The notes under the pieces: generated by a model
Seen by the model: only the letters and a program-made list of their open reading frames with translations
What the model was told of the DNA's origin: nothing
The model's database searches: none
Part shown: piece by piece, positions 29,667-48,983 of the stretch
Position numbering within the stretch: position 1 is the first letter of the stretch
Layout of the letters: every line of letters starts with the position of its first letter
Assembly: GCF_001701045.1 (NCBI RefSeq)
Contig: NZ_CP016757.1
Span: 1,047,501-1,111,500 of the forward strand
Origin: Cloacibacillus porcorum
GTDB lineage: Bacteria > Synergistota > Synergistia > Synergistales > Synergistaceae
Direction: 5' to 3'
Length of the DNA: 64,000 nucleotides
Position numbers and translations under genes: made by a program

Positions 29667-29667
29667 T

Positions 29668-31359: not shown

Positions 31360-31407
31360 CTGGATCAGATTATATCTTGAATTGTATTACTCCCCTCTGA
31401 CTCGTGG

Positions 31408-32995: not shown

Positions 32996-33037
32996 AATAT
33001 AAAAGATATGCTATCCTATCATGCGAGGTGAATGGAA

Positions 33038-33685
33038 ATGGAAGAAAAGTCATTATCTGCACAGGTATATGAAAAGATCAAAGGGGGGATAATTTCCCTG
33101 AAATATCCCCCAGGTTCGGTGCTCAAGGAGCGGGAGCTCTCGGAAAGCCTCGGCGTGAGCCGTACGCCTGTGAGGGAGGCGATACAGCGGCTGTCGCAGG
33201 AATTCTGGCTTGTTCCCGGAGAGGGGAAGCGTATGCAGGTGCGCCCGGTCACTATCGCCGACGTACACGAGATCATCCAGATACGAAACTTAATGGAATA
33301 CGCCGCTATAGACGAAATGCTAAAGAACGGTGAACCACGGGTGGTTGCCGGTCAGTTGGATTCGATATTGAATGAGATGAAATCGGCTACGGAGGAATAC
33401 GTCTTTACAACGCTGGATTTGAAGTTCCATTACCTTGTGGTCGAGAGCATGAAAAACGACAGGCTGCTGAGATTCTGGAGCACCGTCCAGGACGAGGTGC
33501 TGCGAATGGGATTACTGGTGCTCAAGGGAAAAGACCGTTGGCATGAAGTGATAAAGGAACATGAGCACCTGGTAGATATGCTGTGGAACAAAGATGCAGA
33601 GAAAATTAAGTTTGCGATGAAAGAGCATCTGGAACATAGTTATGCGGCTTTGATAAGGGATTTAGAAGAGCGAATCACAAATTAA
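33038..33685 (+). CDS. GntR-family transcriptional regulator (FCD type)
   Basis: A 215-aa regulator. Residues about 5-70 form the winged HTH (LKERELSESLGVSRTPVREAIQRL), and the rest is an all-helical FCD ligand domain with metal/ligand-type His and Asp residues (LKFHYLVVESMKNDRL, EHEHLVDML, MKEHLEHSY). Such proteins usually sense a carboxylate metabolite and repress neighbouring catabolic genes. It precedes the DUF2848-to-MFS island and is its natural regulator. ATG 33038 is 7 nt after GAGGTG; an ATG two codons earlier is too close to it. Confidence 0.9.
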   Translation: MEEKSLSAQVYEKIKGGIISLKYPPGSVLKERELSESLGVSRTPVREAIQRLSQEFWLVPGEGKRMQVRPVTIADVHEIIQIRNLMEYAAIDEMLKNGEPRVVAGQLDSILNEMKSATEEYVFTTLDLKFHYLVVESMKNDRLLRFWSTVQDEVLRMGLLVLKGKDRWHEVIKEHEHLVDMLWNKDAEKIKFAMKEHLEHSYAALIRDLEERITN

Positions 33686-33715
33686 AAAGAAAAATAAAAA
33701 TGGAACAGTAAAGAT

Positions 33716-33757
33716 AAAGCGGAGCGCCGACCAAAACGGTTTCTCCGCTTTTTGTTT
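33716..33757 (+). terminator. Terminator of the gntR gene
   Basis: AAAGCGGAG and CTCCGCTTT form a 9-bp stem around an 18-nt loop, followed by TTGTTTTT. It separates gntR from the next promoter at 33776. Confidence 0.8.
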
Positions 33758-33775
33758 TTGTAAAAACGTATGCTC

Positions 33776-33816
33776 TTGACAAATTTGCATCCAAAATAGA
33801 TAATTTGTATGCAAAT
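33776..33816 (+). promoter_or_regulatory. Promoter with overlapping palindromic operator, catabolic island
   Basis: TTGACA (33776-33781), a 17-bp spacer and GATAAT (33799-33804). ATTTGCAT (33783-33790) and ATGCAAAT (33809-33816) are perfect 8-bp inverted arms, one inside the promoter spacer and one just past the -10 box. A third partial copy, ATTGCATAT, is near 33842. A protein bound here would block transcription; the adjacent GntR product is the obvious candidate. Confidence 0.65.
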
Positions 33817-33886
33817 AAGATAAACATATCCCTTTAATAAAATTGCATATCTTGAAATAGTATAAAGTTTGAAAGGAGTCGGTATT

Positions 33887-34588
33887 GTGAAGTTTAAAGT
33901 TTTAGCGAAAAGCGGAGAAGAAAAGATAATTGATTTTGTACCGAAGCATATTATCAACGCAGGCTATACCGGGCGTGATCAGGCTGCGGTCCAGGCCCAT
34001 ATCGATGAGTTAAAGGAAGAGGGAATACCAGCACCCGACAAGACGCCTGTCTACTTTGTGAAATTTATCGATAAAATTACGCAGTCAGGAGGCTTTGAAG
34101 TCCTTGACGAGACGGACCACTCTGGAGAGGCGGAATTCGCCCTATTTTTTGACAAAGACGAAATATATGTAGGCGTTGGAAGCGACCATACCGACCGCAA
34201 ACTTGAGACTGTGGACATACCAAAGGCAAAACAGATATATCCCAATACCATCAGCAAGGAGCTTTGGAAGCTGAGCGACGTTATTGACCACTGGGACGAC
34301 ATCACTCTGCGCAGCTGGATAAAGGTGGACGGAGAGAGAAAGCTCTTCCAGGAGGCGAAGCTGACGGCCATGCTGGATGCGGCGGATCTTGTGGAGAGGG
34401 CGAAGAAACTCCTTTGTGATCCGAATGACACAGAGGGGTTGGTCCTCTATTCAGGAACCGTCGCATCCCTTTTTAAAGCGGACTACAGCCCTTATTTTGA
34501 GACTGAGCTTGAGGATCCGATCCTTGGCCGCAGGCTGGGCAACGTCTATGAGATGACCTGCAAGTCATCCTGGTATAAGGGCAATTAA
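33887..34588 (+). CDS. DUF2848 family protein
   Basis: A 233-aa cytoplasmic protein of the DUF2848 family, with the landmarks NAGYTGRDQAAVQAHIDELK and EIYVGVGSDHTDR. The family's function is not established; the conserved Asp/His pair and its company with hydrolases suggest an enzyme acting on a carboxylate or ring-opened intermediate (inference). It is the first structural gene after the palindromic operator. GTG 33887 is chosen because AAAGGAG ends 8 nt upstream. Confidence 0.82.
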   Translation: MKFKVLAKSGEEKIIDFVPKHIINAGYTGRDQAAVQAHIDELKEEGIPAPDKTPVYFVKFIDKITQSGGFEVLDETDHSGEAEFALFFDKDEIYVGVGSDHTDRKLETVDIPKAKQIYPNTISKELWKLSDVIDHWDDITLRSWIKVDGERKLFQEAKLTAMLDAADLVERAKKLLCDPNDTEGLVLYSGTVASLFKADYSPYFETELEDPILGRRLGNVYEMTCKSSWYKGN

Positions 34589-34633
34589 ATAAGTTTTCCA
34601 TATATAAACAAAATCAGAGGAGGCGCTTTTGTT

Positions 34634-35035
34634 ATGGCAAAGCAGGAATACGAAATTCGCGATGTGGATCTTCACGGAGAATGGCGGCTGGTAGAGGGCG
34701 GTTACAACGGTACGATGGAGAAAGTTCTCTCCTATGACCCAGAGACGGGAAACTACACAAGGTTGCTGAAATTTCCGCCTAAAACAGAGATGCCGGAGGT
34801 CCTCTCGCATGATTTCTGTGAAGAGATATACGTGGTAGACGGCTATCTGACCGATACTGACAAGAATATCACAATGTGCAAGGGCTATTATGGCTCACGC
34901 CTTCCCGGTATGAAGCACGGCCCTTACAGCATTCCCCTCGGCTGCATGACGATGGAGTTCCGTTATCAGGACCCCAACAAGCCGATCGACCCAGAATGTT
35001 CGCTCCTTAAGAATAAACTCGGCGCACCCAGATAA
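34634..35035 (+). CDS. Cupin-domain protein (ChrR-type)
   Basis: A 133-aa single cupin. Recognisable barrel motifs are HDFCEEIYVVDGYLTD and MKHGPYSIPLGCMTMEFRY, with His and Glu residues that could bind a metal. Such proteins include isomerases, decarboxylases and lyases of small carboxylates, or sensors. It lies 45 nt after the DUF2848 gene, behind AGAGGAGG, and before a terminator. The exact reaction is unknown. Confidence 0.75.
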   Translation: MAKQEYEIRDVDLHGEWRLVEGGYNGTMEKVLSYDPETGNYTRLLKFPPKTEMPEVLSHDFCEEIYVVDGYLTDTDKNITMCKGYYGSRLPGMKHGPYSIPLGCMTMEFRYQDPNKPIDPECSLLKNKLGAPR

Positions 35036-35054
35036 AATAACGAGTTTATCTTAT

Positions 35055-35094
35055 TAATAAGAGGCGTTTATATGACGCATAAACGCCTCTTTAT
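35055..35094 (+). terminator. Terminator after the cupin gene
   Basis: AATAAGAGGCGTTTAT and ATAAACGCCTCTTTATT form a long near-perfect stem around ATGACGC. It may divide the island into two transcripts or act as a partial terminator. Confidence 0.8.
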
Positions 35095-35128
35095 TCTCAT
35101 CTTTTATATTTGAAGGAGAAAAGATATT

Positions 35129-36349
35129 ATGAAACCAAACCTTTCCGTAGAATACTGTGGCGTTAAATTTAAAAATCCGATGGTCATCGCCTCGGCTTCT
35201 CCGAGCAAAAACGGCGAATATATGCGCCGCTGTGCCGAGTCTGGCGCTGGTGGTGTTATCGCCAAGACCTACAGCCCCGAGCCGCTCGCTCAGAAATATG
35301 TCTCTCCGCGCTTTACGGTCCTCCATAAGAAGGGCTGGCCCCACAACTACTCCAACTATTCATGCGAATTTCTCGCCACCTACAACACCGAGGAATGGAT
35401 GCGGGAGATGGCGGCTGCGAAGAAGGCGTGTGACGAACGCGACTGCACGCTGGTCGGCAGTATCTCGGGAAATTCAAAGGAGAGCTGGATTGAGTTGGCG
35501 AAACGCATGGAGGATCTAGGTCTGCCGATGCTTGAACTCAACTTTGGCTGCCCGCATCCCAAGGATCTTGGCTACAAGAGCGGGCAGGAGCTTGGAAATT
35601 CTCCCGAGGCGGCGGCTGAGGTGACGCGTATCGTCTGCGAAGCCGTTAAGATCCCGGTATTTGTAAAACTCACCAGCGAGGCCGTCAGTATCGTTGATGT
35701 GGCGCAGCGCTGTAAGGGCGCGGGTGCGGCGGGTTTCACGGTTGTTAACCGTTTCTCGGCTCTTGATGTAGATATTGAAACGGGACGCCCGATCCTCCAC
35801 GGTGGATTCGCAGGTGTCGGCGGCCCCTGGATGAGGCCGATAACTCTCAAGTGGATCGCGAAGATTGCTGAGGCGACCGGAATGCCGATCTCTGCGACTA
35901 ACGGGATCTTCAGCTGGGAAGATGTGATCAAGTGCATCATGTGCGGCGCGACCACTGTGCAGACCTGCACGGCGATCATGTACGGCCCGAAACAGTTCGG
36001 CGAGGTTAAGACTTTCCTTGATGGCGTGGAAAAGTACCTTGTCGATCACAATATCGACGATATCAACAAGCTCCGCGGCATCACCCTGCCGCAGATAATC
36101 ACCTGGGACAAGGTAGACCGCGAGCATACGGCGATCAGCGTAGTGTGTCAGGATAAGTGTATCGGCTGTGGTCTCTGTCCGAGCTGGTGCTTCTATGACG
36201 CGATAAAGATTGTTGATGTCAACGGCAAGAAGAAGTCCTGCATCGATCCGGATAAGTGCGACGGCTGCGGTCTCTGCGCGGCGCTCTGTCCGAAAGACGC
36301 GATTGAGATGAAGGGCGAAGTGCCAGTCTATCTGGGTGACTTTAACTAA
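35129..36349 (+). CDS. PreA-like dihydropyrimidine/dihydroorotate dehydrogenase with ferredoxin domain
   Basis: A 406-aa flavin enzyme. Residues about 1-330 are a dihydroorotate dehydrogenase-type barrel (NPMVIASASPSKNGEYMRRC, LELNFGCPHPKDLGYKSGQE, VFVKLTSEAVSI). The C-terminus holds two 4Fe-4S clusters: CIGCGLCPSWC and CDGCGLCAALC. PreA reduces uracil or related rings, or works in reverse. The usual partner PreT, an NADH-linked subunit, is not in the window, so electrons must come from elsewhere. The last 78 nt are copied in the relic at 42655. The ribosome site is AAGGAG. Confidence 0.88.
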   Translation: MKPNLSVEYCGVKFKNPMVIASASPSKNGEYMRRCAESGAGGVIAKTYSPEPLAQKYVSPRFTVLHKKGWPHNYSNYSCEFLATYNTEEWMREMAAAKKACDERDCTLVGSISGNSKESWIELAKRMEDLGLPMLELNFGCPHPKDLGYKSGQELGNSPEAAAEVTRIVCEAVKIPVFVKLTSEAVSIVDVAQRCKGAGAAGFTVVNRFSALDVDIETGRPILHGGFAGVGGPWMRPITLKWIAKIAEATGMPISATNGIFSWEDVIKCIMCGATTVQTCTAIMYGPKQFGEVKTFLDGVEKYLVDHNIDDINKLRGITLPQIITWDKVDREHTAISVVCQDKCIGCGLCPSWCFYDAIKIVDVNGKKKSCIDPDKCDGCGLCAALCPKDAIEMKGEVPVYLGDFN

Positions 36350-36360
36350 GAGGATAAAAG

Positions 36361-37146
36361 ATGTCAAAAGACGGCAGATTTGCCATCGTTCGCGGGGGCG
36401 GAGATCTTGCGACGGGGATCATCTACAGGCTGTGGCGAAGCGGGTTTCGAGTTCTTTCGCTCGAAACGTGCACGCCGCTTGTGGTGAGGCGTACGGTATC
36501 GGCTGCCTCTGCCGTCTTTAATGGAAGCGTCGTCATCGATGGGATGCCGGCGAAAAAAATATCGTCCACGGATGAGGTATTTGCGGGCGGAGATGTCTCC
36601 GTACTGATAGATCCGGAGGGTGACTCGATAAAAAAACTGCGTCCGGATTTACTTGTCGACGCCATTATGGCTAAACGAAATACCGGAACGACGATAGATA
36701 TGGCCCCGCTGGTTATCGGAATAGGGCCAGGATTTACGGCCAAGGTTGATGTTCATTACGTTGTTGAGACTAAACGTGGACACTACCTTGGCCGCTTAAT
36801 TTCAGAGGGCGGTGCCATCCCGAATACAGGTATCCCCGGGATGGAGATGGGCTATACCACGGAACGTCTTTTAAGGGCGCCAGCCGAAGGATATCTGACG
36901 CCATATGCGGAGATAGGCGATCATGTGGAGGCTGGGGATGTAGTTGGAGCAGTTGGGACGAAAGAGGTCCGGGCGCAAATTCGCGGAACGCTCAGAGGGT
37001 TGATACATCCGTCGGTTTATCTTACAGAGGGTTTAAAGATAGGCGACGTTGACCCCCGCGATGTCCGGGAGCATTGTTTTTCAATCACCGATAAGGCGCT
37101 GGCGATTGCCGGAGGAGTCTTAGAGGCGGTCCTCAGAAATTGTTGA
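36361..37146 (+). CDS. yqeB: YqeB-type selenium-dependent molybdenum hydroxylase accessory protein
   Basis: A 261-aa protein of the EF2563/YqeB family, which accompanies molybdenum hydroxylases with labile selenium. It opens with FAIVRGGGDLATGIIYRLWR, a nucleotide-binding-type loop, followed by VLSLETCTPLVVRRTVS. GIGPGFTAKVDVHYVVETKRGHYLGR is also characteristic. It sits 11 nt after preA and 37 nt before the hydroxylase genes, which supports a role in maturing that enzyme. The biochemical step is not known. Confidence 0.82.
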   Translation: MSKDGRFAIVRGGGDLATGIIYRLWRSGFRVLSLETCTPLVVRRTVSAASAVFNGSVVIDGMPAKKISSTDEVFAGGDVSVLIDPEGDSIKKLRPDLLVDAIMAKRNTGTTIDMAPLVIGIGPGFTAKVDVHYVVETKRGHYLGRLISEGGAIPNTGIPGMEMGYTTERLLRAPAEGYLTPYAEIGDHVEAGDVVGAVGTKEVRAQIRGTLRGLIHPSVYLTEGLKIGDVDPRDVREHCFSITDKALAIAGGVLEAVLRNC

Positions 37147-37182
37147 TGTAACTCCATCTGAAGTGTCAGGAGGATGAATGCA

Positions 37183-37662
37183 ATGGAGACGCGGGAACTA
37201 AATTTTATTGTGAACGGAAAACCTCAAAAGATAGAGGTACGTACAAATTGGACGCTTGCACTGGCGCTGCGTGAGAAGCTAGGTCTATTAGGAACTAAGA
37301 TCGGGTGCGGCGAAGGTGAATGCGGCGCCTGTACGGTGTTAATGGATGGAAAGACGGTTACTTCATGCCTTGTCCTTGCAGTACAGGCTGAAGGAGCAGA
37401 AATTATTACTATAGAGGGGCTTTCTTCCGAAGACGGACTTCATCCCGTACAGCAGGCCTTTGTCGACGCCGGGGCCATACAGTGCGGATATTGTACGCCT
37501 GGTATGGTCATGTCTGCGGTGGCGCTGCTGGAGAGATATCCAGACCCCACCGATGAACAGATACGCTATGGGCTCACGGGGAACCTTTGCCGCTGTACCG
37601 GTTATCAGAAAATCTTTGAGGCTGTGAGGATAGCCGCAAAACGGATGAGGGGGGTGGCGTGA
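37183..37662 (+). CDS. Molybdenum hydroxylase, 2Fe-2S subunit
   Basis: A 159-aa small subunit of the xanthine dehydrogenase family. The plant-type ferredoxin domain has CGEGECGACTVLMDGKTVTSC; the helical second domain has CGYCTPGMVM and NLCRCTGYQ. It passes electrons from the molybdenum site to FAD. ATG 37183 lies 9 nt after AGGAGG; an ATG at 37174 directly touches that site and is unlikely to be used. The TGA overlaps the next gene's start. Confidence 0.92.
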   Translation: METRELNFIVNGKPQKIEVRTNWTLALALREKLGLLGTKIGCGEGECGACTVLMDGKTVTSCLVLAVQAEGAEIITIEGLSSEDGLHPVQQAFVDAGAIQCGYCTPGMVMSAVALLERYPDPTDEQIRYGLTGNLCRCTGYQKIFEAVRIAAKRMRGVA

Positions 37663-39998
37663 TGGCTGACGTTCGCTTTGAGAAAGGCGTGTATTCTGTA
37701 ATAGGCACAAAGCAGCCCTATATTGACGCGTATGATAAGGTCACGGGGCGCACCAATTATGTAAGCGACCTTTCCCTTCCCGGGATGCTTCATGGAAGAG
37801 CCCTGCGCAGTCCCTATCCTCACGCGCGGATCATTTCTCTTGACACTTCGGCGGCGGAGAAGGTTCCTGGAATCAAATGCGTGCTCACAGGCAAAAACGT
37901 TCGGCAGAACAAGTGGGGGCCGGTTACAAAGGATGAATACCTGCTTGCCGTCGATAAGGTAAACTTCGTCGGAGATGAGGTTGCTGCGGTTGCCGGCGTA
38001 GACGAAGAGGCCTGCGAAGAGGCTCTTTCAAAGATAAAGGTCGAATATGAAGAGCTGCCGGCGGTACTGTCAATGCATGACGCGATGAAAGAGGGAGCTC
38101 CAGTTATACATGAGGACTTTCCCGGCAATGTAAACCATCATTTTGATATTCCGCGCGGTGATATAGACTCCGTTTTTAAAAACGCCTATTTGGTACATGA
38201 AGGCGAATATGAGACTCAGCTTGAATATCAGGCCTATATTGAACCGATGGGCGGTATCTCGACCTGGGACAGTAAGGGTAACCTTACGATATATGCCGGT
38301 ATCCAGACGCCTACCTGGTCAAGGAATGATTACGCCGTAGCGCTTGGCATCCCGGTCGAAAAGATAAGGATCGTACAGCCCTATTTTGGCGGCGGGTTTG
38401 GCGCCAAGCTCTCGCAGCAGGTACACCCGCTCGGCGCGCTGCTTGCGAAATACGCCGAGCAGCCGGTCAGGTTCTTCTTAGACAGAGTTGAAGATTTTCA
38501 GTGCGGGCTTCCGCGCGTACCGATGTATTTCAAGATCAAGACGGCTTGGGACAGAGACGGCAAATACCTTGGAAAACGTACCTATATCCTTGCCGACAAC
38601 GGCGCGTACGCGTCTTACGGAGCGCCGATCGCGCTGACGGCCATGTACCGTATCGATATTATGTATCAGGTTCCGGTCCTGCATTCTGTATGTGATCTGG
38701 TTTATACGAACAAAGTTCCAACCGGATGCTTCCGTGGCTTCGGCAACACGCAGATGCACCTTGCGCACGAAACGCATCTTGATGAAGTCGCCGAAATGCT
38801 GGGAATAGGTGCGGATGAAATACGTTACCGCAACATCGCCGTTCCGGGCTACAAGAATCCGCATGGCTGGAAGACCAATAGCTGCGAGATTAAGCAGTGC
38901 ATTGAAAAAGCGGTCACGAAATCCGATTACCACGCGAAACGTGACGAGCTGACCAAGAAAAATGAATCCACCGGCGATATCAAAAGAGGAATCGGGCTTG
39001 CGGGCGCGGTGCATGTATCCGGAAACAGATCGTTCATAAAGCCGTTTGAGGGAGGCGCAGTTCTCCTTCGGATGAATGAGCAGGGAAAAGTCTACATTTA
39101 CAGCAACGAGCCGGATATGGGACAGGGCATAAGGACTACGCTGAGCATATGCGTCGCAGACGCGCTTAAACTGGACCTCGACCATATCTGTGTGCCTGAT
39201 CCCGACACGAATATCGTGCCGTTCGGGCTTGGCTGTTTTGCCAGCCGTGGAACTTACATGGCTACTGGCGCGATGCACATGGCGGTGGAGGATATGAGGG
39301 CGAAGCTGATAAAACTTGCCTCAGAGATGCTTTCGCTTCCTGAAGAGGAATTGAAGCTGGCGGACGGCTCCGTCGTTTCCGCAAAAGATCCCTCTAAAAG
39401 AGCGTCATTTGCCGAGCTGGCGTGGAAACATGTCTGTGATTTTCCAGGACAGCATATTCTGGGAATCGGACACTTTACCCCCGCGGGCGTCGAATATCCC
39501 GACGAAACAAAGTACAACAATATCTCAGGAGGCTATGCCTTCGGGTGCCATGTTGCGGAGGTAGAGGTAAATACCAAAACCGGACAGATCAAGGTATCTA
39601 ATATATTCGCAGTTCACGACGTTGGTCAGCCGATAAACCGTTTGGCCCTTGAAGGACAGCTGCAGGGCGGTATCGCTCAAGGATACGGATGGGCCCTCAT
39701 GGAGCACTTGAAACATAACGAAAAGGGCAGAGTGGCAAATGCCTGTTTCCTTGACTACCAGATACCGACCGCCGCGGACATTCCCCAAATAGAGGTGGAC
39801 TTTGCGGACAGCTTTGAGTGGTCGACCGGGTTTGGTGCAAAATCGATTGGAGAATGCGCGACAAATCCAACTGCTCCCGCGATATTGAACGCTATCTATA
39901 ATGCGGTGGGGATAAGGTTCAAAGAACTTCCAATAACCGCCGAAAAGATGCTCAAAGCGCTGAAAGAAAAAGAGAAGGCCTCTGAAGGCAGAGGTTAG
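37662..39998 (+). CDS. Molybdenum hydroxylase, molybdopterin-binding large subunit
   Basis: A 778-aa catalytic subunit of the xanthine dehydrogenase/aldehyde oxidase family. The molybdopterin motifs FGGGFGAK and GCFRGFGNTQ and the catalytic glutamate in GAKSIGECATNPTAPAI (near residue 734) are all present. The sequence around the glutamate differs from true xanthine dehydrogenases, so the substrate is probably another N-heterocycle or aldehyde. It overlaps the 2Fe-2S subunit (ATG at 37662 inside its TGA); the FAD subunit follows 15 nt later. Confidence 0.9.
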   Translation: MADVRFEKGVYSVIGTKQPYIDAYDKVTGRTNYVSDLSLPGMLHGRALRSPYPHARIISLDTSAAEKVPGIKCVLTGKNVRQNKWGPVTKDEYLLAVDKVNFVGDEVAAVAGVDEEACEEALSKIKVEYEELPAVLSMHDAMKEGAPVIHEDFPGNVNHHFDIPRGDIDSVFKNAYLVHEGEYETQLEYQAYIEPMGGISTWDSKGNLTIYAGIQTPTWSRNDYAVALGIPVEKIRIVQPYFGGGFGAKLSQQVHPLGALLAKYAEQPVRFFLDRVEDFQCGLPRVPMYFKIKTAWDRDGKYLGKRTYILADNGAYASYGAPIALTAMYRIDIMYQVPVLHSVCDLVYTNKVPTGCFRGFGNTQMHLAHETHLDEVAEMLGIGADEIRYRNIAVPGYKNPHGWKTNSCEIKQCIEKAVTKSDYHAKRDELTKKNESTGDIKRGIGLAGAVHVSGNRSFIKPFEGGAVLLRMNEQGKVYIYSNEPDMGQGIRTTLSICVADALKLDLDHICVPDPDTNIVPFGLGCFASRGTYMATGAMHMAVEDMRAKLIKLASEMLSLPEEELKLADGSVVSAKDPSKRASFAELAWKHVCDFPGQHILGIGHFTPAGVEYPDETKYNNISGGYAFGCHVAEVEVNTKTGQIKVSNIFAVHDVGQPINRLALEGQLQGGIAQGYGWALMEHLKHNEKGRVANACFLDYQIPTAADIPQIEVDFADSFEWSTGFGAKSIGECATNPTAPAILNAIYNAVGIRFKELPITAEKMLKALKEKEKASEGRG

Positions 39999-40013
39999 GG
40001 GGAGGAAGCTGCT

Positions 40014-40862
40014 ATGTTCAACGTCACTTATTTTGCGCCTAACAATTTGTCTGATGCGCTCGATTATCTCTCCGAACACAAAGATGCGCGGATATTGGCG
40101 GGAGGGACGGATCTTATCGCCAAGTGGAAGAAGATCGGTCACCCTGATATGGATCTGCTGGATATCCGCAATATAGAAAGTTTTAAAGAGATATCTCAGT
40201 GTGAAAATGGGCTATTCATTGGGGCGGGTGTCACGATGGATACGGTACAGTACAGCGCCGTTATTGTGGAACAGTTGCCGATTCTCGCCGAGGCGGCGGG
40301 CAAGGTTGGGTCCGTGCAGGTCAGGAACATGGCCACGATCGGAGGCAACATCTGCAATGCCGCTCCCTCCGCCGATACGGTATTGCCTCTCATTGTATAT
40401 GATGCCGAGGCAGTAATTGTTTCAAAAAATGCCGAAAAACGTTGTCCTTTGAAGAAATTTTTTGTCGGTCCTGGCAAAACGATTCTACAGCAGGGTGAGC
40501 TGCTGAAAGGGGTTTTCGTACCTTATCCCGCTAAAGAAAGCGGCGCCGCGTTTGCAAAACACAGCAGGCGTGTGGGAATGGACTTGGCGACGGTCGGCGT
40601 GGCGGTTGATATCTGTCTGAGCGACGATACGGTGGGATATGTCAGGGTTGCACTTGGAGCCGTTGGTCCAGTTCCTATTTTCGTAAAAAGCCTTGAAAAA
40701 TTTACCGGAGCCAAGATAGGAGACGGTGTTATAGAAGAAATAGCTGTTATTTCAGCCGACCAAGCGGTACCGATTACCGACGTACGCGGCAGCAGAGAAT
40801 ATAGAAAAGACATGGTTTATGAAAATGTGAAAAAGTGTCTGTCTGAGGCACTCAAGAAGTAA
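40014..40862 (+). CDS. Molybdenum hydroxylase, FAD-binding subunit
   Basis: A 282-aa CoxM-type flavoprotein completing the three-subunit hydroxylase. The FAD motifs AGGTDLIAKWKK and TIGGNICNAAPSADT are clear, and the C-terminal CO-dehydrogenase flavoprotein domain follows (VGMDLATVGVAVDICL, ITDVRGSREYRKDM). GGGGAGGA lies ahead of the ATG. Downstream are 146 bp without a gene or convincing terminator. Confidence 0.92.
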   Translation: MFNVTYFAPNNLSDALDYLSEHKDARILAGGTDLIAKWKKIGHPDMDLLDIRNIESFKEISQCENGLFIGAGVTMDTVQYSAVIVEQLPILAEAAGKVGSVQVRNMATIGGNICNAAPSADTVLPLIVYDAEAVIVSKNAEKRCPLKKFFVGPGKTILQQGELLKGVFVPYPAKESGAAFAKHSRRVGMDLATVGVAVDICLSDDTVGYVRVALGAVGPVPIFVKSLEKFTGAKIGDGVIEEIAVISADQAVPITDVRGSREYRKDMVYENVKKCLSEALKK

Positions 40863-41008
40863 TGTAACTTAACTGTTGGCGGCATTCTGTGTGAAAATTG
40901 CCGGCTTTTTACGCCGAGTGCCGCTAGCGTTGCTTATCCATATTTATAAGTAATCGCGTATGAAGTACTAAAGTCTGTTCAAATTTTTTGATGAGGAGTT
41001 GGTCTTGA

Positions 41009-42241: not shown

Positions 42242-42257
42242 GGGCTTATCAATATAT

Positions 42258-42294
42258 TTCGTGCAGTACCGGTCATATTGCGGTATTGCACGAA
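42258..42294 (+). terminator. Hairpin after the transporter gene, possible terminator
   Basis: TTCGTGCAGTACCG and CGGTATTGCACGAA form a 14-bp stem with one mismatch. It is followed by TAAATTT rather than a true T run, so termination may be partial. Confidence 0.5.
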
Positions 42295-42329
42295 TAAATT
42301 TCTAAAAAGTGATGATCATATGAGTTAAG

Positions 42330-42655
42330 AAAAAATTTTTTAGAGCGTGGCTTGTCCAGATTCCGGTAGTTCTCTGAGACAGGCGGGTGAATATGGAGAG
42401 TGTTGGGCGCTGGTTCTCTCCGAGTGTTACAGACCGGCAGAGATTACGACCGCGTTTGTTCTTCCTGAGCTTTGGAATACCGGCTACGCGCTTGATATCG
42501 TTCCAAAGCTGGCTGACAGAAACGCGGCAGAGACGACGGAGCTCCTTGGGCGCCTGGCAAAGAAATACGGCTACGGTCTTTGCGCGGTGCTCTGTCCGAA
42601 GGATGCGATCAAGATGAAGGGTGAAGTGCCACTCTATCTGGGAGACTTCAATTGA
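42330..42655 (+). pseudogene. Chimeric relic: 5' nitrilase-family gene joined to 3' preA
   Basis: Positions about 42335-42572 copy the 5' part of the nitrilase gene at 45481, and 42567-42655 copy the last part of preA (36266-36349). The two meet at a shared ACGGCT. The start ATG is lost, a TGA interrupts the nitrilase frame near 42373, and 2 bases are inserted near 42416 (TTCTCTCC for CTCTCC). A 102-codon frame through it is therefore a remnant. It sits between the BenE-like and TRAP genes and implies a former nitrilase-to-preA order. Confidence 0.88.
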
Positions 42656-42666
42656 GGTGACAGACT

Positions 42667-43128
42667 TTGCGTCTATTAGAAAAAATAGCGGGAGCTATAA
42701 GCATTTTTTTCCTGGGTGTTGCTATTCTTTTAGTAACTTTCAATGTTACCGCGAGATATGTTTTCAATTACGGAGAACCATGGTGTGAAGAAGCGATACG
42801 CTATTCTGTCGTCTTTGCCACATTTTTTGGACTAAGCCTCGCAGTTGCTAAAAATGAAAGCATGAAGATAGATGTATTGGTACAACTTACAAAGGGCAGG
42901 CTGCAGCGGTTGATTCATCTGATAGGCACGTTGGCGGAAGTTACGGTGCTGTGGCTGCTTCTATACTTCTCATATCTTCTGGTGGCAGAAACGATAGAAA
43001 GCGGTCAGATAACGCCCTCGGCGGATTACCCGATGTACATTCCGTATCTGTTTGTGACAGCGGGAGTCTTTGTATGTGCCTTGAGCTCGCTTTACGCCCT
43101 TTACAATGCAATAAAGGGGGAAAAATAA
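42667..43128 (+). CDS. dctQ: TRAP transporter small membrane subunit (DctQ)
   Basis: A 153-aa protein with four transmembrane helices and the DctQ motif FNYGEPWCEEAIRYSVVFATFFG. It bridges the binding protein and the large subunit of a sodium-driven carboxylate importer. It starts at TTG 42667, 6 nt after AGGTGA; no Met lies near. The large subunit begins 1 nt past the stop. Confidence 0.88.
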   Translation: MRLLEKIAGAISIFFLGVAILLVTFNVTARYVFNYGEPWCEEAIRYSVVFATFFGLSLAVAKNESMKIDVLVQLTKGRLQRLIHLIGTLAEVTVLWLLLYFSYLLVAETIESGQITPSADYPMYIPYLFVTAGVFVCALSSLYALYNAIKGEK

Positions 43129-43129
43129 G

Positions 43130-44419
43130 ATGGAAATGGCGATGGTACTTTTCGCTACGCTGTTTATTTTCCTTTTCCTCAGTGCCCCTATCTACGTGGC
43201 GTTGACAGCCTCTTCGCTTATAACAATGTTTATTTTTGGCGATTACAGTTTGTCAGCGGTCATGCAGAGGATATTTGGCGGCATGGACAAATTTGCCCTG
43301 ATGTCTCTGCCATTTTATGTTCTTGCCGCGGATATTATGACTGTTGGGGGAATGTCCAAAAAAATCGTTGATTTTGTTAATGTGGCAATGGGCAGCTTCC
43401 GTGGCAGTCTTGCCATCGTGACACAGGGGGCCAGTATGTTTTTTGGAGCATTATCTGGCTCAAGTCCAGCGACGGTAGTTGCGATAGGCTCGATGATGTA
43501 CCCCAGGCTCACAAATGAGGCTGAGGGAGGTTATTCCAAGAGGTTTGCCGCTGGCCTTATTACGTCGTCGGGAGCTGTAGCAATTTTGATACCTCCGAGT
43601 ATAACGTTCATTATTTACGGAGCCACGACAGGTGTTTCGATTGCGGCGCTGTTTGCCGGCGGACTTGGCGCTGGGCTAGTATTCGGTGGCTTGATAATGC
43701 TCTACAGCTATTATTACGCCTTAAATCACCACGTGGTAGTTGGACAGAAAGTTACCAGCGCTGAACTTATAAAAGTTACCAAGGATGCTTCTTGGTCTCT
43801 TGGGGTTCCGGTAATTATTGTCGGTGGAATATCAGCCGGGATATTTACTCCCACGGAGGCTGCTGGATTTTCAGTTGTATATGCGCTTTTTGTATGTGTG
43901 TTCATATACAAGGAACTTCCACTTTCAAAGCTATTAATGGCAATGAAGACCTCTGCCGTTACGATAGGACAGCTGATGATGCTGCTTGGTACGGCAGGGT
44001 TGTTTGGCTGGGTGCTGACTGTCTCGTTCTTTCCGCAAATTCTTGCTGAGTTATTGACGACGACCATAACATCGAAATATACCATGCTGTTTATTGTCAA
44101 TATAATGTTCCTTATTGCAGGGATGTTTGTTGATGGAGGTGCGGCCATAATGATTCTTGCGCCGCTGATCTTTCTTCCTATGGTCAAACTTGGCGTCGAC
44201 CCCGTTCATCTTGGAGTAGTTTTAGTAACCAACCTCTCTATTGGTATGTTTACTCCACCCTTTGGATTGAACCTTTTTGTCGCGCGCTCTGTTACGGGAC
44301 TGTCTCTTGGTGAAATATACCGTTCCGTGTTGCCGTTTATAGTAATCAGCATAATAGCTCTGATTATTATTACCTATATTCCGGCGGTGTCTATGATTTT
44401 TGTTTCGCTACTTTCTTAA
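43130..44419 (+). CDS. dctM: TRAP transporter large membrane subunit (DctM)
   Basis: A 429-aa channel subunit with about 12 helices. It shows LPFYVLAADIMTVGGMSKKI, GALSGSSPATVVAIGSMMYP, IPPSITFIIYGATTGVSI and GMFTPPFGLNLFVARSV, all standard for DctM. The substrate is set by the DctP protein that follows 32 nt later. It is part of the catabolic island. Confidence 0.92.
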   Translation: MEMAMVLFATLFIFLFLSAPIYVALTASSLITMFIFGDYSLSAVMQRIFGGMDKFALMSLPFYVLAADIMTVGGMSKKIVDFVNVAMGSFRGSLAIVTQGASMFFGALSGSSPATVVAIGSMMYPRLTNEAEGGYSKRFAAGLITSSGAVAILIPPSITFIIYGATTGVSIAALFAGGLGAGLVFGGLIMLYSYYYALNHHVVVGQKVTSAELIKVTKDASWSLGVPVIIVGGISAGIFTPTEAAGFSVVYALFVCVFIYKELPLSKLLMAMKTSAVTIGQLMMLLGTAGLFGWVLTVSFFPQILAELLTTTITSKYTMLFIVNIMFLIAGMFVDGGAAIMILAPLIFLPMVKLGVDPVHLGVVLVTNLSIGMFTPPFGLNLFVARSVTGLSLGEIYRSVLPFIVISIIALIIITYIPAVSMIFVSLLS

Positions 44420-44451
44420 TATTAATGAATACTCAGGGAGGAAAATTGACT

Positions 44452-45462
44452 ATGAAAAAGAGCTTTAAGTTGGCAGTACTGGTTTTAGCGTGTGTCGTCG
44501 CTGTTGCGGGAATTTCGGAAGCCGCAGTAAAAAAGGTCAAGCATGCGATCACCGTCAATATGGATGACGCCGGAGGTGTTGCGGCAGCTACAATGAAAGA
44601 TAATATAAAAAAGTATTCGAACGGCGCGATGGAACTTCAAATTTTTCCTGGAAGCCAGCTTGGAGGAATGAGGGAACACTATGAAGCATGTCAGAGCGGC
44701 GCAATTGAAACGATTTATGTCGCGGCGTCGGCGGCTTCGAAGTTTGTTCCCGAAGTGGGAGTCTTAGATTTGCCCTTCCTCTTTCCGACCGACTATGATA
44801 AGGCGTGGAAGGTAATAGACGGGGATTTAACAAAAATTCTTGCCGAGAAACTTGCAAAGCAGAACTTTGTCCTCCTCGGCATCGCTCCCTATGGCTATAA
44901 GAGCCTCCATTCAGGTACTAAACAGATCAAATCTTTGAAGGATATCTCCGGCATGAAAATAAGGATTATGCCGTCAAAGACTCTGGAGCTTACGTACAAG
45001 GCGTGGAATGCCAATCCGACCCCCGTTGAATTTGGCGAACTTTATGTAGCTCTTCAGCAGAGAGTCGTCGACGGCGGAGAAAATGGCCTTTCTGTTATAA
45101 AGGCGCAGAAATTTAACGAAGTACAGCCGTACCTCACAGTCTCAAAACACGGCCTTTTTATGGGGCTGATGGTCGCCAACAAAAGATGGTTTGATAAACT
45201 TTCTGATAGCGAAAGAGAGGTAATTATAAAGGCGGCTAAAGAAAATATAACGCAGCAGCGAAAGTATGTGGCTGAAGAGGACGAAAAAATAATCAAATAC
45301 CTTGGCGAGAACGGTATGACGGTCTATCGTCTCAGTTCTAAAGAGGCGGCTGAATTTGAGAAGGCTTCACAGCCGGTATATAAGGCTTTCAGCGATATCT
45401 CAGCGGAAAACAAAAGAACGCTGGATACTGTCTTAAAGGCTAAAAAAGACTTTGGATACTAA
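44452..45462 (+). CDS. dctP: TRAP transporter substrate-binding protein (DctP)
   Basis: A 336-aa periplasmic protein with a signal peptide (LAVLVLACVVAVAGISEA). The family's conserved carboxylate-binding arginine lies in MKIRIMPSKTLELTYKAWNA, and ALQQRVVDGGENGLSV follows. It captures an organic acid for DctQM. ATG 44452 is 10 nt after GGGAGG; the frame is open 9 codons earlier at ATG 44425. The nitrilase-family gene follows in the same direction. Confidence 0.9.
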   Translation: MKKSFKLAVLVLACVVAVAGISEAAVKKVKHAITVNMDDAGGVAAATMKDNIKKYSNGAMELQIFPGSQLGGMREHYEACQSGAIETIYVAASAASKFVPEVGVLDLPFLFPTDYDKAWKVIDGDLTKILAEKLAKQNFVLLGIAPYGYKSLHSGTKQIKSLKDISGMKIRIMPSKTLELTYKAWNANPTPVEFGELYVALQQRVVDGGENGLSVIKAQKFNEVQPYLTVSKHGLFMGLMVANKRWFDKLSDSEREVIIKAAKENITQQRKYVAEEDEKIIKYLGENGMTVYRLSSKEAAEFEKASQPVYKAFSDISAENKRTLDTVLKAKKDFGY

Positions 45463-45480
45463 AATTGGGAGGCAGGAATA

Positions 45481-46293
45481 ATGGAAAAAAAATTTAGAGC
45501 GGGACTCGTCCAGATACCGGTCGTTCTCGGGGACAGGCAGGCAAATATGGAGAGTGTTGAGCGCTGGCTCTCCGAGTATTACAGACCGGCGGAGATTACG
45601 ACCGCGCTTGTTCTCCCGGAGCTCTGGGACACCGGCTACGCGCTTGATATTGTTCCGAAGCTGGCTGACAGAAACGCGGCTGAAACGACGGAGTTCCTTG
45701 GGCGCCTGGCAAAGAAATACGGCTGCTGGTTTACCGGCGGTTCTGTGATGGCGGAAGATAACGGGAAGTATTACAACAGAGCCCTGATCATCAATCCTCG
45801 GGGCGAACTGGTCACATTTTACGACAAAGTTCACCTCGTGCCTTTTATAACGGTAGAAGACGGAGTATTTGAGCATGGAGAAAAGCCCTGTGTTTTTGAT
45901 ATGGACGGCATCACCTGCGGGAGCCTTATCTGCTACGACATCCGTTTCCCTGAGTGGATCCGCGTATATGCCCTGAAGGGAGTGGAGACGCTGTTTATCT
46001 GCAGCCAGTGGACGCGCTCTCGTATGGACCTCTATCGGACGATGATACGCGCCCATGCGATAGAAAATATGTTCTTTACCGTGGCGGTAAATAACTGTGA
46101 CTATTCCGGCGACATTGATTTCGGAGGCGAGTCCTTCGTGTCGTCGCCGACCGGCGATGTTCTTGCCTCTTGCAGCGGCACGCGCGACGGAAAGTTTGCC
46201 GAAGTGGATGTTACAAACATAAACGAAAACAGGCAGTTTCTCAAGGTTTTTGAAAAACGGCTGCCGCATCTTTACGGCGATCTTTGTAAATAG
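45481..46293 (+). CDS. Carbon-nitrogen hydrolase (nitrilase superfamily, omega-amidase-like)
   Basis: A 270-aa amidase with the nitrilase triad Glu47 (LPELWDTGY), Lys116 (FYDKVHLVPF) and Cys151 (SLICYDIRFPEW). Length and motifs are closest to omega-amidases and related small amide hydrolases, which release ammonia from a dicarboxylic acid amide. It follows the TRAP importer genes by 18 nt. A decayed copy of its 5' end is at 42330. Its likely role is to hydrolyse an amide formed after ring opening or imported by TRAP (inference). Confidence 0.87.
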   Translation: MEKKFRAGLVQIPVVLGDRQANMESVERWLSEYYRPAEITTALVLPELWDTGYALDIVPKLADRNAAETTEFLGRLAKKYGCWFTGGSVMAEDNGKYYNRALIINPRGELVTFYDKVHLVPFITVEDGVFEHGEKPCVFDMDGITCGSLICYDIRFPEWIRVYALKGVETLFICSQWTRSRMDLYRTMIRAHAIENMFFTVAVNNCDYSGDIDFGGESFVSSPTGDVLASCSGTRDGKFAEVDVTNINENRQFLKVFEKRLPHLYGDLCK

Positions 46294-46386
46294 TCCGTTT
46301 ATGTAATATCGCGGATAGGTGGAGGGGCTGTCATTGTGAATCACACTTTTGGCGGTCCCTTTTTATTCTTCGTAAGGGTGATATTA

Positions 46387-47631
46387 ATGAAAAAATTTGA
46401 TGGAATAACCGTTTATACCACTTATGCGCTGTTGATTATGTCCTATTTCCTAAGCTGCTTGATAAGAACCTCCGGCGGCGTCGTTCTTCCTGTGGTTTCT
46501 TCTTCGATAGGGTTGTCCTCAACTGCCGTTGGTCTTATATCTGGAATGTATTTTTACGGTTATACGATGTCACAGCCGTTCTGCGGGAAGATGTGCGACG
46601 ATAAAGGACCATTAAACGTAGAGATGTGCGGACTTGTAGTGTTTACCTGCGGGCTGTTGCTCTTCTCGCTCTCAGAGAACGCTTTCATGTTGTGCGTGGC
46701 GCGTCTCTTACTCGGGGTTGGAGCGGGGCCTACTTTCTGCGGGTTGATGGTTTTTCAGGCTAAAGCGCTGCCTCCGCATCTGTTTTCAAAATTTATGGGA
46801 TTCACCATAATGTTTGGCCACTTCGGAGGCGTAGTGTCGATAACGCCATTGGGTTCGGCGATTGATATGTTAGGCTATAAGAACGTACATTATATCCTTG
46901 CGATTTTTTCTGTAATTATAATTTTTATGCTTTATATGATGAACCGCCGTCTATTGTTTATAAAGTCTGAAAAGGAGCAAGTTTCTCGCAGCAGCGGTGT
47001 GTTGAGGGGGTTTCGGATCATATTTAACAGCAGGCCGCTCCTTGTCGTCGTAATTGTGTGGTCCCTAACCATGATACTCCAGATGAACCTGATCGGGTTA
47101 TGGGGTGTCAGCTGGATAAGCAGCGCCTGCTTATTGTCACAAGAGACGGCAAGAAACTGCATGTCAATGGGCGGTATCGGCGTCCTCGCCGGAGCGTGTA
47201 TCATTGGCTGCACAGGCAACAAATTTTCTAAATCGGCAGCATACCTTCGGGGGTTCTATATTATACAGATAATAAGTTTGGCTGCATTGATCATTGGCGT
47301 GAGTTATTGTTGGCAATGGGAATCTTTAGCAGCTTTAACATTTATAATTGGTATGACATTGGGGATTATAAATGTTTTATGCAATATATTCCTATTTAAG
47401 ATAGTTGGCGGAGATTTGGTTGGGACGGTAACTGGGGCATGCAATGTTATCCTGTTTTTAAATGTGCTGCTGAGCCAGTGGTTTTCAGGCGCGTTTATTC
47501 AGAAATGGAACGAAACGATGATTTTTTCACAAGTTGCAGCACCATCAGCGTTTTTTGCACTTGTAGTTGTCTTGGGAATAGTTATCTTTTATCCTATTTA
47601 TAATACATCTTATAAATCGCTGAACGAGTAG
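46387..47631 (+). CDS. MFS transporter
   Basis: A 414-aa, 12-helix major facilitator protein. The first half has VVLPVVSSSIGLSSTAVGLI and YGYTMSQPFCGKMCDDKGP, the typical loop 2-3 motif. It ends the island and may export a product or import a further substrate. ATG 46387 follows AAGGGTGA; a GTG at 46336 after GGAGGGG would add 17 residues and cannot be excluded. AT content rises towards its 3' end. Confidence 0.8.
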   Translation: MKKFDGITVYTTYALLIMSYFLSCLIRTSGGVVLPVVSSSIGLSSTAVGLISGMYFYGYTMSQPFCGKMCDDKGPLNVEMCGLVVFTCGLLLFSLSENAFMLCVARLLLGVGAGPTFCGLMVFQAKALPPHLFSKFMGFTIMFGHFGGVVSITPLGSAIDMLGYKNVHYILAIFSVIIIFMLYMMNRRLLFIKSEKEQVSRSSGVLRGFRIIFNSRPLLVVVIVWSLTMILQMNLIGLWGVSWISSACLLSQETARNCMSMGGIGVLAGACIIGCTGNKFSKSAAYLRGFYIIQIISLAALIIGVSYCWQWESLAALTFIIGMTLGIINVLCNIFLFKIVGGDLVGTVTGACNVILFLNVLLSQWFSGAFIQKWNETMIFSQVAAPSAFFALVVVLGIVIFYPIYNTSYKSLNE

Positions 47632-48972: not shown

Positions 48973-48983
48973 GGAGGCGCGAT

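What the first reader, a model, noticed from the sequence alone, without database searches (positions are those of the whole stretch)
33038..47631. Candidate undescribed catabolic island with a GntR regulator, DUF2848, PreA-like enzyme and a selenium-type molybdenum hydroxylase
Genes for hydroxylating (Mo hydroxylase plus YqeB), ring-reducing (PreA-like), possible ring-product processing (DUF2848, cupin) and amide hydrolysis (nitrilase family) lie with two kinds of importer. The set resembles a route for an N-heteroaromatic or cyclic amide, but no known pathway I can name has this exact combination. The substrate cannot be told from the sequence.
Basis: partly seen in the sequence, partly recalled or inferred. 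Interest (0 to 1): 0.72.

Follow-up and report, generated by a model that had tools for sequence, protein, structure and literature searches.

The report
Uncharacterised ring-degrading gene island in Synergistota
A gut bacterium carries a conserved set of genes that looks built to break down a nitrogen-containing ring compound without oxygen, by adding oxygen from water, reducing the ring and then opening it; the exact compound is unknown.

Summary
Every named gene is there, on one strand, at about 33.0-47.6 kb: GntR/FCD, DUF2848, cupin, PreA-like flavo-ferredoxin reductase, YqeB, three-subunit Mo hydroxylase, BenE, TRAP, nitrilase-fold amidase, MFS. It is not chance: the DUF2848-cupin-PreA run recurs in 8 of the 34 DUF2848-bearing Synergistota genomes whose surroundings I read, and a promoter with an overlapping palindrome is conserved before DUF2848 in 6 genomes. 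The hydroxylase misses all curated xanthine-dehydrogenase cut-offs; its best solved match is Mo-Se nicotinate dehydrogenase. DUF2848, on which I found no paper, is predicted to have the fumarylacetoacetate-hydrolase fold. DUF2848 with an amidase (often a cupin) also occurs in a haloarchaeon, actinobacteria, proteobacteria and Priestia, in places beside other hydroxylases (Mo, flavin) or reductases (FrhB-like, OYE). Best reading: hydroxylate, reduce, then hydrolyse an N-heteroaromatic acid to a 2-oxo dicarboxylate plus ammonia. Picolinate is my best single guess (about 0.27). In one genome an MttB/corrinoid/betaine-transporter block stands where BenE would be, which points to an N-methyl betaine as feedstock. 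All reactions, selenium and the substrate are inferred.

The parts
32841..32900 (+). remnant of the N-terminus of an M24 peptidase-family gene, upstream of gntR
   Evidence: 20 aa, 65% identical to the M24 protein of G021 (E 3e-5 when only this gap is searched, 0.010 in the whole window); an intact M24 lies just upstream of the island in G026
33032..33685 (+). GntR/FCD transcription regulator
   Evidence: PF00392, PF07729; before DUF2848 in 7 of 8 island genomes, the eighth (G019, first copy) being cut by the contig end
33716..33760 (+). probable terminator after gntR (AAAGCGGAG...CTCCGCTTT then T run)
   Evidence: inverted repeat printed, sequence; not listed by the terminator scan, whose loops are 8 bases at most
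33776..33815 (+). promoter TTGACA-17-GATAAT with overlapping palindrome TTKGYATRCMAA, probable GntR operator
   Evidence: conserved in 6 genomes; joint pattern found in 14 of 197 loci, all 14 being island promoters
33887..34588 (+). DUF2848 protein; predicted FAH-fold, Mg-dependent hydrolase of a 2-oxo/2-imino acid lactam or amide
   Evidence: PF11010; AF2 model and fold search; conserved HxxE, ExE and D
34634..35035 (+). ChrR-type cupin (Cupin_7)
   Evidence: PF12973; 80-95% identical in the other islands; a cupin match lies in the same ORF as a CN hydrolase in Priestia
35129..36349 (+). PreA-like FMN/2x[4Fe-4S] reductase; proposed ring reductase
   Evidence: PF01180 and 4Fe-4S families; NCBIfam PreA 259 bits under its 335 cut-off; 86-94% identical among six islands
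36361..37146 (+). YqeB, marker of the labile-selenium cofactor
   Evidence: TIGR03309 341 bits, cut-off 220
37174..37662 (+). Mo hydroxylase [2Fe-2S] subunit
   Evidence: PF01799, PF00111
37659..39998 (+). Mo hydroxylase Mo-binding subunit
   Evidence: PF01315, PF02738, PF20256; both halves match 3hrd (Mo-Se nicotinate dehydrogenase) best
40014..40862 (+). Mo hydroxylase FAD subunit
   Evidence: PF00941, PF03450
41009..42241 (+). BenE-family importer, probably for an aromatic acid
   Evidence: PF03594, 249 bits
42331..42651 (+). rearrangement scar: Nit 5' copy joined to PreA 3' copy
   Evidence: blastn 88% and 87% to 45485-45724 and 36261-36345
42667..45462 (+). TRAP transporter DctQ, DctM, DctP
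   Evidence: PF04290, PF06808, PF03480; homologous TRAP genes flank DUF2848 in other Synergistota
45481..46293 (+). nitrilase-fold amidase (Nit), proposed omega-amidase step
   Evidence: PF00795; nearest solved chain 3p8k, 160 bits
46336..47631 (+). MFS transporter
   Evidence: PF07690; homologues follow the run in G001, G009 and G026

Best explanation
The island encodes one inducible, oxygen-independent route for an N-heteroaromatic acid. BenE and/or TRAP import it. The Mo hydroxylase, probably selenium-dependent through YqeB, puts an oxygen from water next to the ring nitrogen and makes a cyclic lactam (pyridone) form. The PreA-like FMN/[4Fe-4S] protein, fed by ferredoxin rather than by PreT, reduces the ring double bond conjugated to the new carbonyl, as dihydropyrimidine dehydrogenase does with uracil. 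This leaves a cyclic N-acyl enamine of a 2-oxo acid. DUF2848, a Mg-dependent FAH-fold enzyme, binds the 2-oxo/2-imino carboxylate and, perhaps with the cupin, opens the ring. Nit removes the amide as ammonia. GntR represses the operon at a palindrome over the promoter until an inducer binds. Best single substrate guess: picolinate to 6-hydroxypicolinate to 6-oxo-1,4,5,6-tetrahydropicolinate to 2-oxoadipamate to 2-oxoadipate + NH3 (about 0.27). Shown: gene content, synteny, conserved promoter/palindrome, predicted FAH fold, conserved residues. Inferred: every reaction, the order of steps, selenium, the repression by GntR, the substrate.
For: Conserved run: DUF2848-cupin-PreA in 8 of the 34 DUF2848-bearing Synergistota genomes read (34 of 38 such genomes, among 185). 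In all 8 of 185 genomes with a hydroxylase at least 70% identical, a PreA gene (in G009 a part of one at the contig start) lies in the same run. Promoter plus palindrome conserved in 6 genomes; its pattern in 14 of 197 loci, all island promoters. Both halves of the Mo subunit match nicotinate dehydrogenase 3hrd best, 249.6 v 226.8 and 166.7 v 142.4 bits for the next. DUF2848 model: the first 8 Foldseek rows (E 8e-5 to 6e-3) are FAH-fold 2-oxo-acid enzymes (family membership of these entries partly recalled); rows 1-46 of the 50 shown by VIA-align are of that kind at Z 8.1-12.1, then a drop to 4.3. HxxE, ExE and D conserved in 21 DUF2848 proteins, 28-92% identical to the window's; the FAHD1 dyad is His30-Glu33 (PMC8398924, passages). 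The same logic with other enzymes: L127 GntR, CN hydrolase, DUF2848, cupin-like, FrhB-like, Mo hydroxylase; Natrinema Mo hydroxylase, DUF2848, cupin, CN hydrolase within 9 kb; Rhodococcus and Prescottella DUF2848-OYE-CN hydrolase; Thioclava flavin reductase-HpaB-cupin-amidase-DUF2848. In G021 MttB, BCCT, corrinoid protein and an MtaA-like protein lie between the hydroxylase and Nit; that MttB occurs in 1 of 185 genomes at E up to 1e-80, only there. SelD, YqeC and YqeB in the genome.
Against: No enzyme of the island was assayed in any work I found. No downstream genes fix the product. The sister species G001 has the same DUF2848-cupin-PreA with another hydroxylase (40% identical), so the substrate may differ between islands. 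The nicotinate-dehydrogenase affinity is only partly specific: a second locus of the same genome matches 4HBCR and 3hrd about equally (245.6 v 242.2), and a third paralogue 3hrd, aldehyde oxidoreductase and XDH about equally. DUF2848 shows no sequence-level link to FAH proteins; the model is of middling confidence (pLDDT 67.6) and its Foldseek TM-scores are low (0.31-0.54). In 9 of the 34 genomes no CN hydrolase was seen near DUF2848 (4 of these 9 stretches are short because the contig ends). The cupin is not tied to DUF2848: in Rhodococcus pyridinivorans it lies beside a P450 with no DUF2848 annotated. The second DUF2848 locus of G019 has cupin and amidase but no PreA of its own before the contig ends. 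BCCT imports many betaines, so the MttB block does not name the ring.
Confidence: 0.6

Rival explanations
1. Nicotinate (or trigonelline after N-demethylation) degradation of the Eubacterium barkeri kind: 6-hydroxylation, reduction to 1,4,5,6-tetrahydro-6-oxonicotinate, opening to 2-formylglutarate.
For: Closest solved hydroxylase is nicotinate dehydrogenase. The MttB block in G021 would fit trigonelline. Two PrpF-family genes lie elsewhere in the genome.
Against: No amidohydrolase (enamidase is one, recalled) and no later pathway genes among the island proteins scanned. FAH-fold enzymes act on 2-oxo acids, whereas this route gives a 3-oxo-type acid. Around the two PrpF genes I recognised no E. 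barkeri set (read mostly from ORF starts by eye).
Confidence: 0.2
2. Pyrrole-2-carboxylate (from hydroxyproline breakdown) is hydroxylated at C5 and hydrolysed by DUF2848 and the amidase to 2-oxoglutarate + NH3; the PreA-like protein has another role.
For: HpaB-type monooxygenase with flavin reductase, cupin, amidase and DUF2848 in Thioclava; HpaB-type neighbours also in Roseateles and Cupriavidus. That a known pyrrole-2-carboxylate monooxygenase is of this type is recalled. The Natrinema locus also has DAO, OCD/mu-crystallin and aldehyde dehydrogenase genes. No PreA or OYE gene is annotated beside DUF2848 in Thioclava or Roseateles.
Against: The PreA-like gene is 86-94% conserved in the island and is not explained by this substrate.
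Confidence: 0.15
3. Pyridinediol (mimosine-derived 3,4-DHP / 2,3-DHP) degradation.
For: An 86% identical hydroxylase and the full run lie in G026, probably Synergistes jonesii by size, contig number and genus, which cleaves pyridinediols (PMC12366334, section 7). Reduced 2,3-DHP would be a 2-oxo lactam, which suits an FAH-fold hydrolase.
Against: The island is also in genomes of other genera, including the window's own, for which I know of no report of DHP degradation. BenE and the betaine block point to an acid. The identity of G026 is inferred.
Confidence: 0.1
4. Ordinary purine or pyrimidine catabolism (selenium-dependent xanthine dehydrogenase plus dihydropyrimidine dehydrogenase).
For: [quoted passage not shown] difficile (PMC11448449, abstract and passages). 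PreA is the best-scoring NCBIfam family of the reductase.
Against: Mo subunit and PreA-like protein miss all xanthine-dehydrogenase and PreA cut-offs. No PreT, hydantoinase, allantoinase or purine permease among the island proteins scanned.
Confidence: 0.06

Closest known systems
Nicotinate fermentation cluster of Eubacterium barkeri (nicotinate dehydrogenase, 3hrd)
   Same: Mo hydroxylase whose best solved match is this enzyme, with a ferredoxin-type ring reductase; selenium trait
   Different: Mo-binding part is one chain here, two chains (3hrd A, B) there; DUF2848 + cupin + nitrilase-fold amidase in place of enamidase and the later enzymes (E. barkeri cluster details recalled)
PreA/PreT dihydropyrimidine dehydrogenase
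   Same: PreA-like architecture: FMN barrel plus two 4Fe-4S clusters
   Different: 259 bits against a 335 cut-off; 30-33% identical to the annotated PreA rows listed; no PreT partner among the island proteins scanned
FAHD1 / fumarylpyruvate hydrolase / Cg1458 (FAH superfamily)
   Same: predicted fold of DUF2848; HxxE and ExE..D conserved
   Different: no sequence similarity detected; substrate unknown
DUF2848-cupin loci of Thioclava, Roseateles, Cupriavidus with HpaB-type monooxygenase (unnamed pathway)
   Same: cupin and DUF2848, with a PF01425 amidase in Thioclava and Roseateles, beside a ring hydroxylase
   Different: oxygen-dependent flavin monooxygenase and another amidase family; no PreA or OYE annotated beside them in Thioclava or Roseateles

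Membership tests
Selenium-dependent Mo hydroxylase (SDMH) trait | yqeB with the hydroxylase, selD and yqeC in the genome | tested here: met
   YqeB over cut-off in the island; SelD 321 bits (one in-frame TGA) and YqeC 126 bits in the genome
Selenium-dependent Mo hydroxylase (SDMH) trait | labile Se on the Mo site of this enzyme | not testable with these tools
   needs purified enzyme or 75Se labelling
Xanthine dehydrogenase (NCBIfam equivalogs) | score over the curated cut-off | tested here: not met
   L: 562 v 780, 546 v 916, 445 v 784, 365 v 830, 330 v 850; M: 235 v 310, 229 v 287; S: 190 v 217, 183 v 254, 168 v 212
Nicotinate dehydrogenase (E. barkeri) | closest solved homologue of the Mo subunit | tested here: met
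   3hrd A and B first for the two halves, but two paralogues come close to it too
Nicotinate dehydrogenase (E. barkeri) | Mo-binding part split in two chains | tested here: not met
   single 779-aa ORF v chains of 425 and 330 aa
Nicotinate dehydrogenase (E. barkeri) | 6-hydroxylation of nicotinate | not testable with these tools
   enzyme assay needed
E. barkeri nicotinate pathway | enamidase and later pathway genes beside the hydroxylase | tested here: not met
   none among the island proteins scanned; PrpF-family genes elsewhere only
PreA (NCBIfam PRK08318) | score over cut-off and a PreT partner | tested here: not met
   259 v 335 bits; no PreT among the island proteins scanned
FAH superfamily (for DUF2848) | FAH fold | tested here: met
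   predicted model only: Foldseek and VIA-align, pLDDT 67.6
FAH superfamily (for DUF2848) | sequence or profile similarity | tested here: inconclusive
   no match; the last used a two-sequence FAH profile
FAH superfamily (for DUF2848) | metal-binding ExE..D and catalytic His/Glu | tested here: inconclusive
   H39, E42, E82, E84, D104 invariant in 21 sequences; their place in an active site was not checked on coordinates
Ring-catabolic operon (one regulated unit) | conserved order, strand and promoter/operator | tested here: met
   transcription itself not tested

The most novel reading that the evidence does not exclude
DUF2848 founds a widespread class of ring-opening hydrolases, FAH-fold enzymes that cleave cyclic N-acyl enamino acids (a C-N bond where FAH enzymes cut C-C). 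With cupin and amidase they form a portable module joined in evolution to Mo or flavin hydroxylases and to PreA-, FrhB- or OYE-type reductases to degrade N-heteroaromatics. In gut Synergistota it gives a new anaerobic picolinate/homarine-type pathway and, at the boldest, the pyridinediol (mimosine detoxification) genes of Synergistes jonesii.
Probability: 0.25. Interest if true: 0.82.

Novelty: new variant of a known kind. Interest (0 to 1): 0.58.

Why it matters
It gives a domain of unknown function (PF11010; no paper found in the open-licence library) a predicted fold, a probable mechanism and a partner set that can be assayed one enzyme at a time. It predicts an anaerobic way, new to me, by which gut bacteria may remove N-heteroaromatics such as pyridine acids, their N-methyl betaines or toxic pyridinediols. 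For S. jonesii, a 2020 review lists the products of DHP breakdown as unidentified (PMC7590051, passages), and a 2025 review asks for genomics and transcriptomics of DHP degradation (PMC12366334, passages). This island is a concrete candidate to test there.

Tried and rejected
Wrong family number: one search searched PF10941 (DUF2620) in place of PF11010; only its statement of where the window lies was used.

Sequence routes to a fold for DUF2848 failed: phmmer v PDB 0 hits, profile v PDB 3 chance-level hits, hhalign v two FAH-type proteins 0.2%. Only the predicted model gave a fold.

Literature: trigonelline + MttB gave 3 papers (listing only) and pyrrole-2-carboxylate + amidase + monooxygenase gave none. 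Searches on 6-hydroxynicotinate, picolinic acid and pyrrole-2-carboxylate + hydroxyproline were read as listings only. S. jonesii searches showed 30 rows of 165 and 37 papers; no title named DHP genes. Of those papers I read two whole (PMC4153494, PMC11008178), sections and passages of PMC12366334, and passages of PMC3709534, PMC7590051 and PMC9318921. This is no proof of absence.

Finding the island outside Synergistota by its PreA: 53 loci, of which 6 are 87-89% identical (5 Synergistaceae/Synergistes records and one contig filed as a Caldisericia MAG, L039). Of the other 47, 45 match most of the barrel at 23-31%, and 2 (L084, L088) match only a short stretch. By plasmids: 176 records, all under 60% identity; of the 20 listed, those with an annotation under the match read PreA. 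The palindrome alone is not specific: 2 places in the own genome against 3 for the reversed control; with 2 mismatches in the window, 10 matches v 5.5 expected. The promoter scan as a whole is weak: 33 found v 20.4 expected, terminators 22 v 19.8.

Considered and dropped: FumA/FumB and the second MFS as part of the pathway. They follow the run in G000 and G026 but not in G015 or G021. Genomes not read around DUF2848: 4 of 38 (G073, G075, G136, G140).

In one search the window's own amidase hit within 8.5 kb is the scar, so I count the window with the genomes whose amidase lies farther along the run.

Organism names: the window's genome as Cloacibacillus porcorum is recalled from size and phylum; G026 as S. 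jonesii is inferred (2.7 Mb, 60 contigs, rounded, v 2,747,397 bp in 61 contigs; same genus as G033, whose 4516-base contig equals JAEEYY010000049.1, Synergistes sp.).

Roles read off ORF starts by eye, not by a family search: most genes around the two PrpF copies and parts of the Natrinema and Cupriavidus loci.


Full report
What is there. From DUF2848 to the M subunit the gaps are -4 to 93 bases; the gap before BenE is 146 and the gap before the TRAP genes 425. That 425-base gap holds a scar: a copy of the Nit 5' end (88% identical to 45485-45724) fused to a copy of the PreA 3' end (87% to 36261-36345). The window is 1047501-1111500 of a single 3,585,187-base contig.

Is it more than chance. 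DUF2848 occurs in 38 of 185 Synergistota genomes. I read the surroundings in 34 of the 38 (and the window; not G073, G075, G136, G140). DUF2848, cupin and PreA stand in a row in 8 of 34. A cupin lies within 8.5 kb in 13 of 34, and a TRAP large subunit within 8.5 kb in 21 of 34. A CN hydrolase stands within 8.5 kb in 22 of 34, and in 3 more (G015, G021 and the window's own genome) it lies farther along the same run; in 9 none was seen, 4 of these being short stretches at contig ends. A hydroxylase at least 70% identical occurs in 8 of 185 genomes, and in all 8 a PreA gene lies in the same run; the G009 contig begins inside PreA and the G165 contig just before it. So there is a wide core (DUF2848, amidase, often a cupin or TRAP) and a narrower island that adds the PreA-like protein, a Mo hydroxylase and mostly YqeB.

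Regulation. Before DUF2848 there is a TTGACA-17-GATAAT promoter whose -10 box runs into a palindrome, perfect in G032 (TTGGCATGCCAA) and G033 (TTGGTATACCAA). The joint pattern is found in 14 of 197 fetched loci, all of them island promoters, from 6 genomes; G015 and the fetched parts of G019 lack it. A full or half site also lies before gntR in G032, G001 and the window. The palindrome alone is not rare enough to trace a regulon. This supports one regulated unit; transcription was not measured.

The hydroxylase. The S, L and M subunits score below every NCBIfam cut-off listed for them, those of xanthine dehydrogenase, 4-hydroxybenzoyl-CoA reductase and CO dehydrogenase included. The best solved match of each half of L is the Mo-Se nicotinate dehydrogenase of E. 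barkeri (249.6 v 226.8 bits and 166.7 v 142.4 for the next chain). The different hydroxylase in the sister genome's island (40% identical) prefers it still more (first half, 262.6 v 213.7). Two controls from the window's own genome weaken this. One paralogue matches 4-hydroxybenzoyl-CoA reductase and nicotinate dehydrogenase about equally (245.6 v 242.2). Another matches nicotinate dehydrogenase, an aldehyde oxidoreductase and xanthine dehydrogenase about equally (143.0, 141.7, 140.7). YqeB is in the island and twice more in the genome; SelD and YqeC are present. In C. [quoted passage not shown] Selenium here is an inference.

DUF2848. No paper in the library mentions it, and no sequence search reaches a related solved structure. 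A model from six sequences (pLDDT 67.6, pTM 0.70) has as its first eight Foldseek matches FAH-fold enzymes (E 8e-5 to 6e-3, TM-score 0.31-0.54). In VIA-align rows 1-46 of the 50 shown have Z 8.1-12.1, by title or from recall all of that superfamily (fumarylpyruvate hydrolase, FAHD1, HpcE, keto-deoxy-sugar-acid dehydratases, oxalocrotonate decarboxylase, MhpD and putative members); the next row is at 4.3. In 21 sequences H39, E42, E82, E84, D104, K116 and others are invariant. FAHD1 uses a His30-Glu33 pair and a Mg that binds a 1,2-dicarbonyl (PMC8398924, passages). I did not check residue positions on coordinates.

The same logic elsewhere. L127, a genome of another family, has GntR/FCD, CN hydrolase, DUF2848, a cupin-like protein (under the Pfam cut-off), an FrhB-like iron-sulphur protein and a different Mo hydroxylase. 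A haloarchaeal plasmid (Natrinema) has a Mo hydroxylase with CoxG, DUF2848 (46% identical), cupin (55% over 96 aa, other strand) and CN hydrolase. Rhodococcus and Prescottella plasmids have DUF2848, an Old Yellow Enzyme and a CN hydrolase. Thioclava has flavin reductase, HpaB-type monooxygenase, cupin, amidase and DUF2848 in a row; HpaB-type neighbours recur in Roseateles and Cupriavidus. In Priestia the cupin match lies in the same ORF as the CN hydrolase, next to DUF2848. Other loci have less: Paracoccus, Pantoea and Caballeronia show DUF2848 with an amidase and a transporter but no ring enzyme. Different hydroxylases and reductases around one hydrolytic core argue that the core opens and deamidates the ring product.

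Substrate clues. BenE-type importers suggest an aromatic acid (family knowledge). In G021 MttB, BCCT, corrinoid protein and MtaA-like genes stand between the hydroxylase and Nit on the same strand, and no BenE was seen on that contig. This MttB occurs in 1 of 185 genomes at E up to 1e-80, only there. That suggests an N-methyl betaine whose demethylation gives the ring acid: homarine to picolinate, or trigonelline to nicotinate. An FAH-fold enzyme needs a 2-oxo or 2-imino acid. Of the two only picolinate gives one after 6-hydroxylation and reduction, hence my preference (about 0.27). Nicotinate, pyrrole-2-carboxylate and pyridinediols stay open.

Mechanism, step by step. Import: inferred. Hydroxylation beside the ring nitrogen: inferred from the family. 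Reduction of the double bond conjugated to the new carbonyl: inferred from the PreA family. Ring opening by DUF2848: inferred from fold and residues. Amide hydrolysis by Nit: inferred from the family. Induction through GntR: inferred from the footprint.

Synergistes link. G026 carries the run with an 86% identical hydroxylase. It shares a genus with G033, whose contig is that of a Synergistes sp. record, and its rounded size and contig number fit S. jonesii 78-1 (PMC4153494, whole text). That species cleaves pyridinediols (PMC12366334, section 7). The review calls for genomics and transcriptomics of DHP degradation (passages). The island is also in other genera, so this is a lead, not a claim.

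Verdict. A real, conserved island for which I found no description; new in its combination, built from known enzyme kinds.

Noticed in passing
G000:C1:3113000-3132999 (L167); alike in L169-L174: A second YqeB-linked Mo hydroxylase locus with an OYE/FAD/FeS reductase, a 4Fe-4S protein, amidohydrolase, methylaspartate ammonia-lyase (482 bits, cut-off 286), fumarase-type hydro-lyase and citrate-lyase-type subunits. It looks like a ring-to-methylaspartate-to-citramalate route; L169-L174 hold parts of the same set.
   Followed up: partly
window 20131-32547: Two DUF3798/ABC-transporter blocks upstream of the island, one with an intact M24 peptidase-family gene (20140-21237, 86% identical to that of G021). 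An M24 remnant lies at 32841-32900; intact M24 genes lie upstream of the island in G026 and G021. Genes annotated as M24 or Xaa-Pro peptidase also lie near DUF2848 in Caballeronia and Bradyrhizobium.
   Followed up: partly
window 47732-50415: A second MFS gene and class-I fumarase subunits follow the island; the same order is 65-85% conserved in G026.
   Followed up: partly
L016 9239-17871: The sister species has the same DUF2848-cupin-PreA start but another Mo hydroxylase, another amidase type, TRAP genes and a second PreA (65% identical): a cassette swap.
   Followed up: partly
L179 (G000:C1:1842426-1843355): SelD match with one in-frame TGA, probably a selenocysteine.
   Followed up: no
L039: A contig filed as a Caldisericia MAG carries cupin and PreA 81-88% identical to the Synergistota island: transfer or mis-binning.
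   Followed up: no
L192 (G000:C1:647000-666999): A fused 947-aa Mo hydroxylase beside PrpF, TRAP and MmgE/PrpD genes; the only other exact copy of the palindrome pattern in the genome (662932) lies in this stretch.
   Followed up: no
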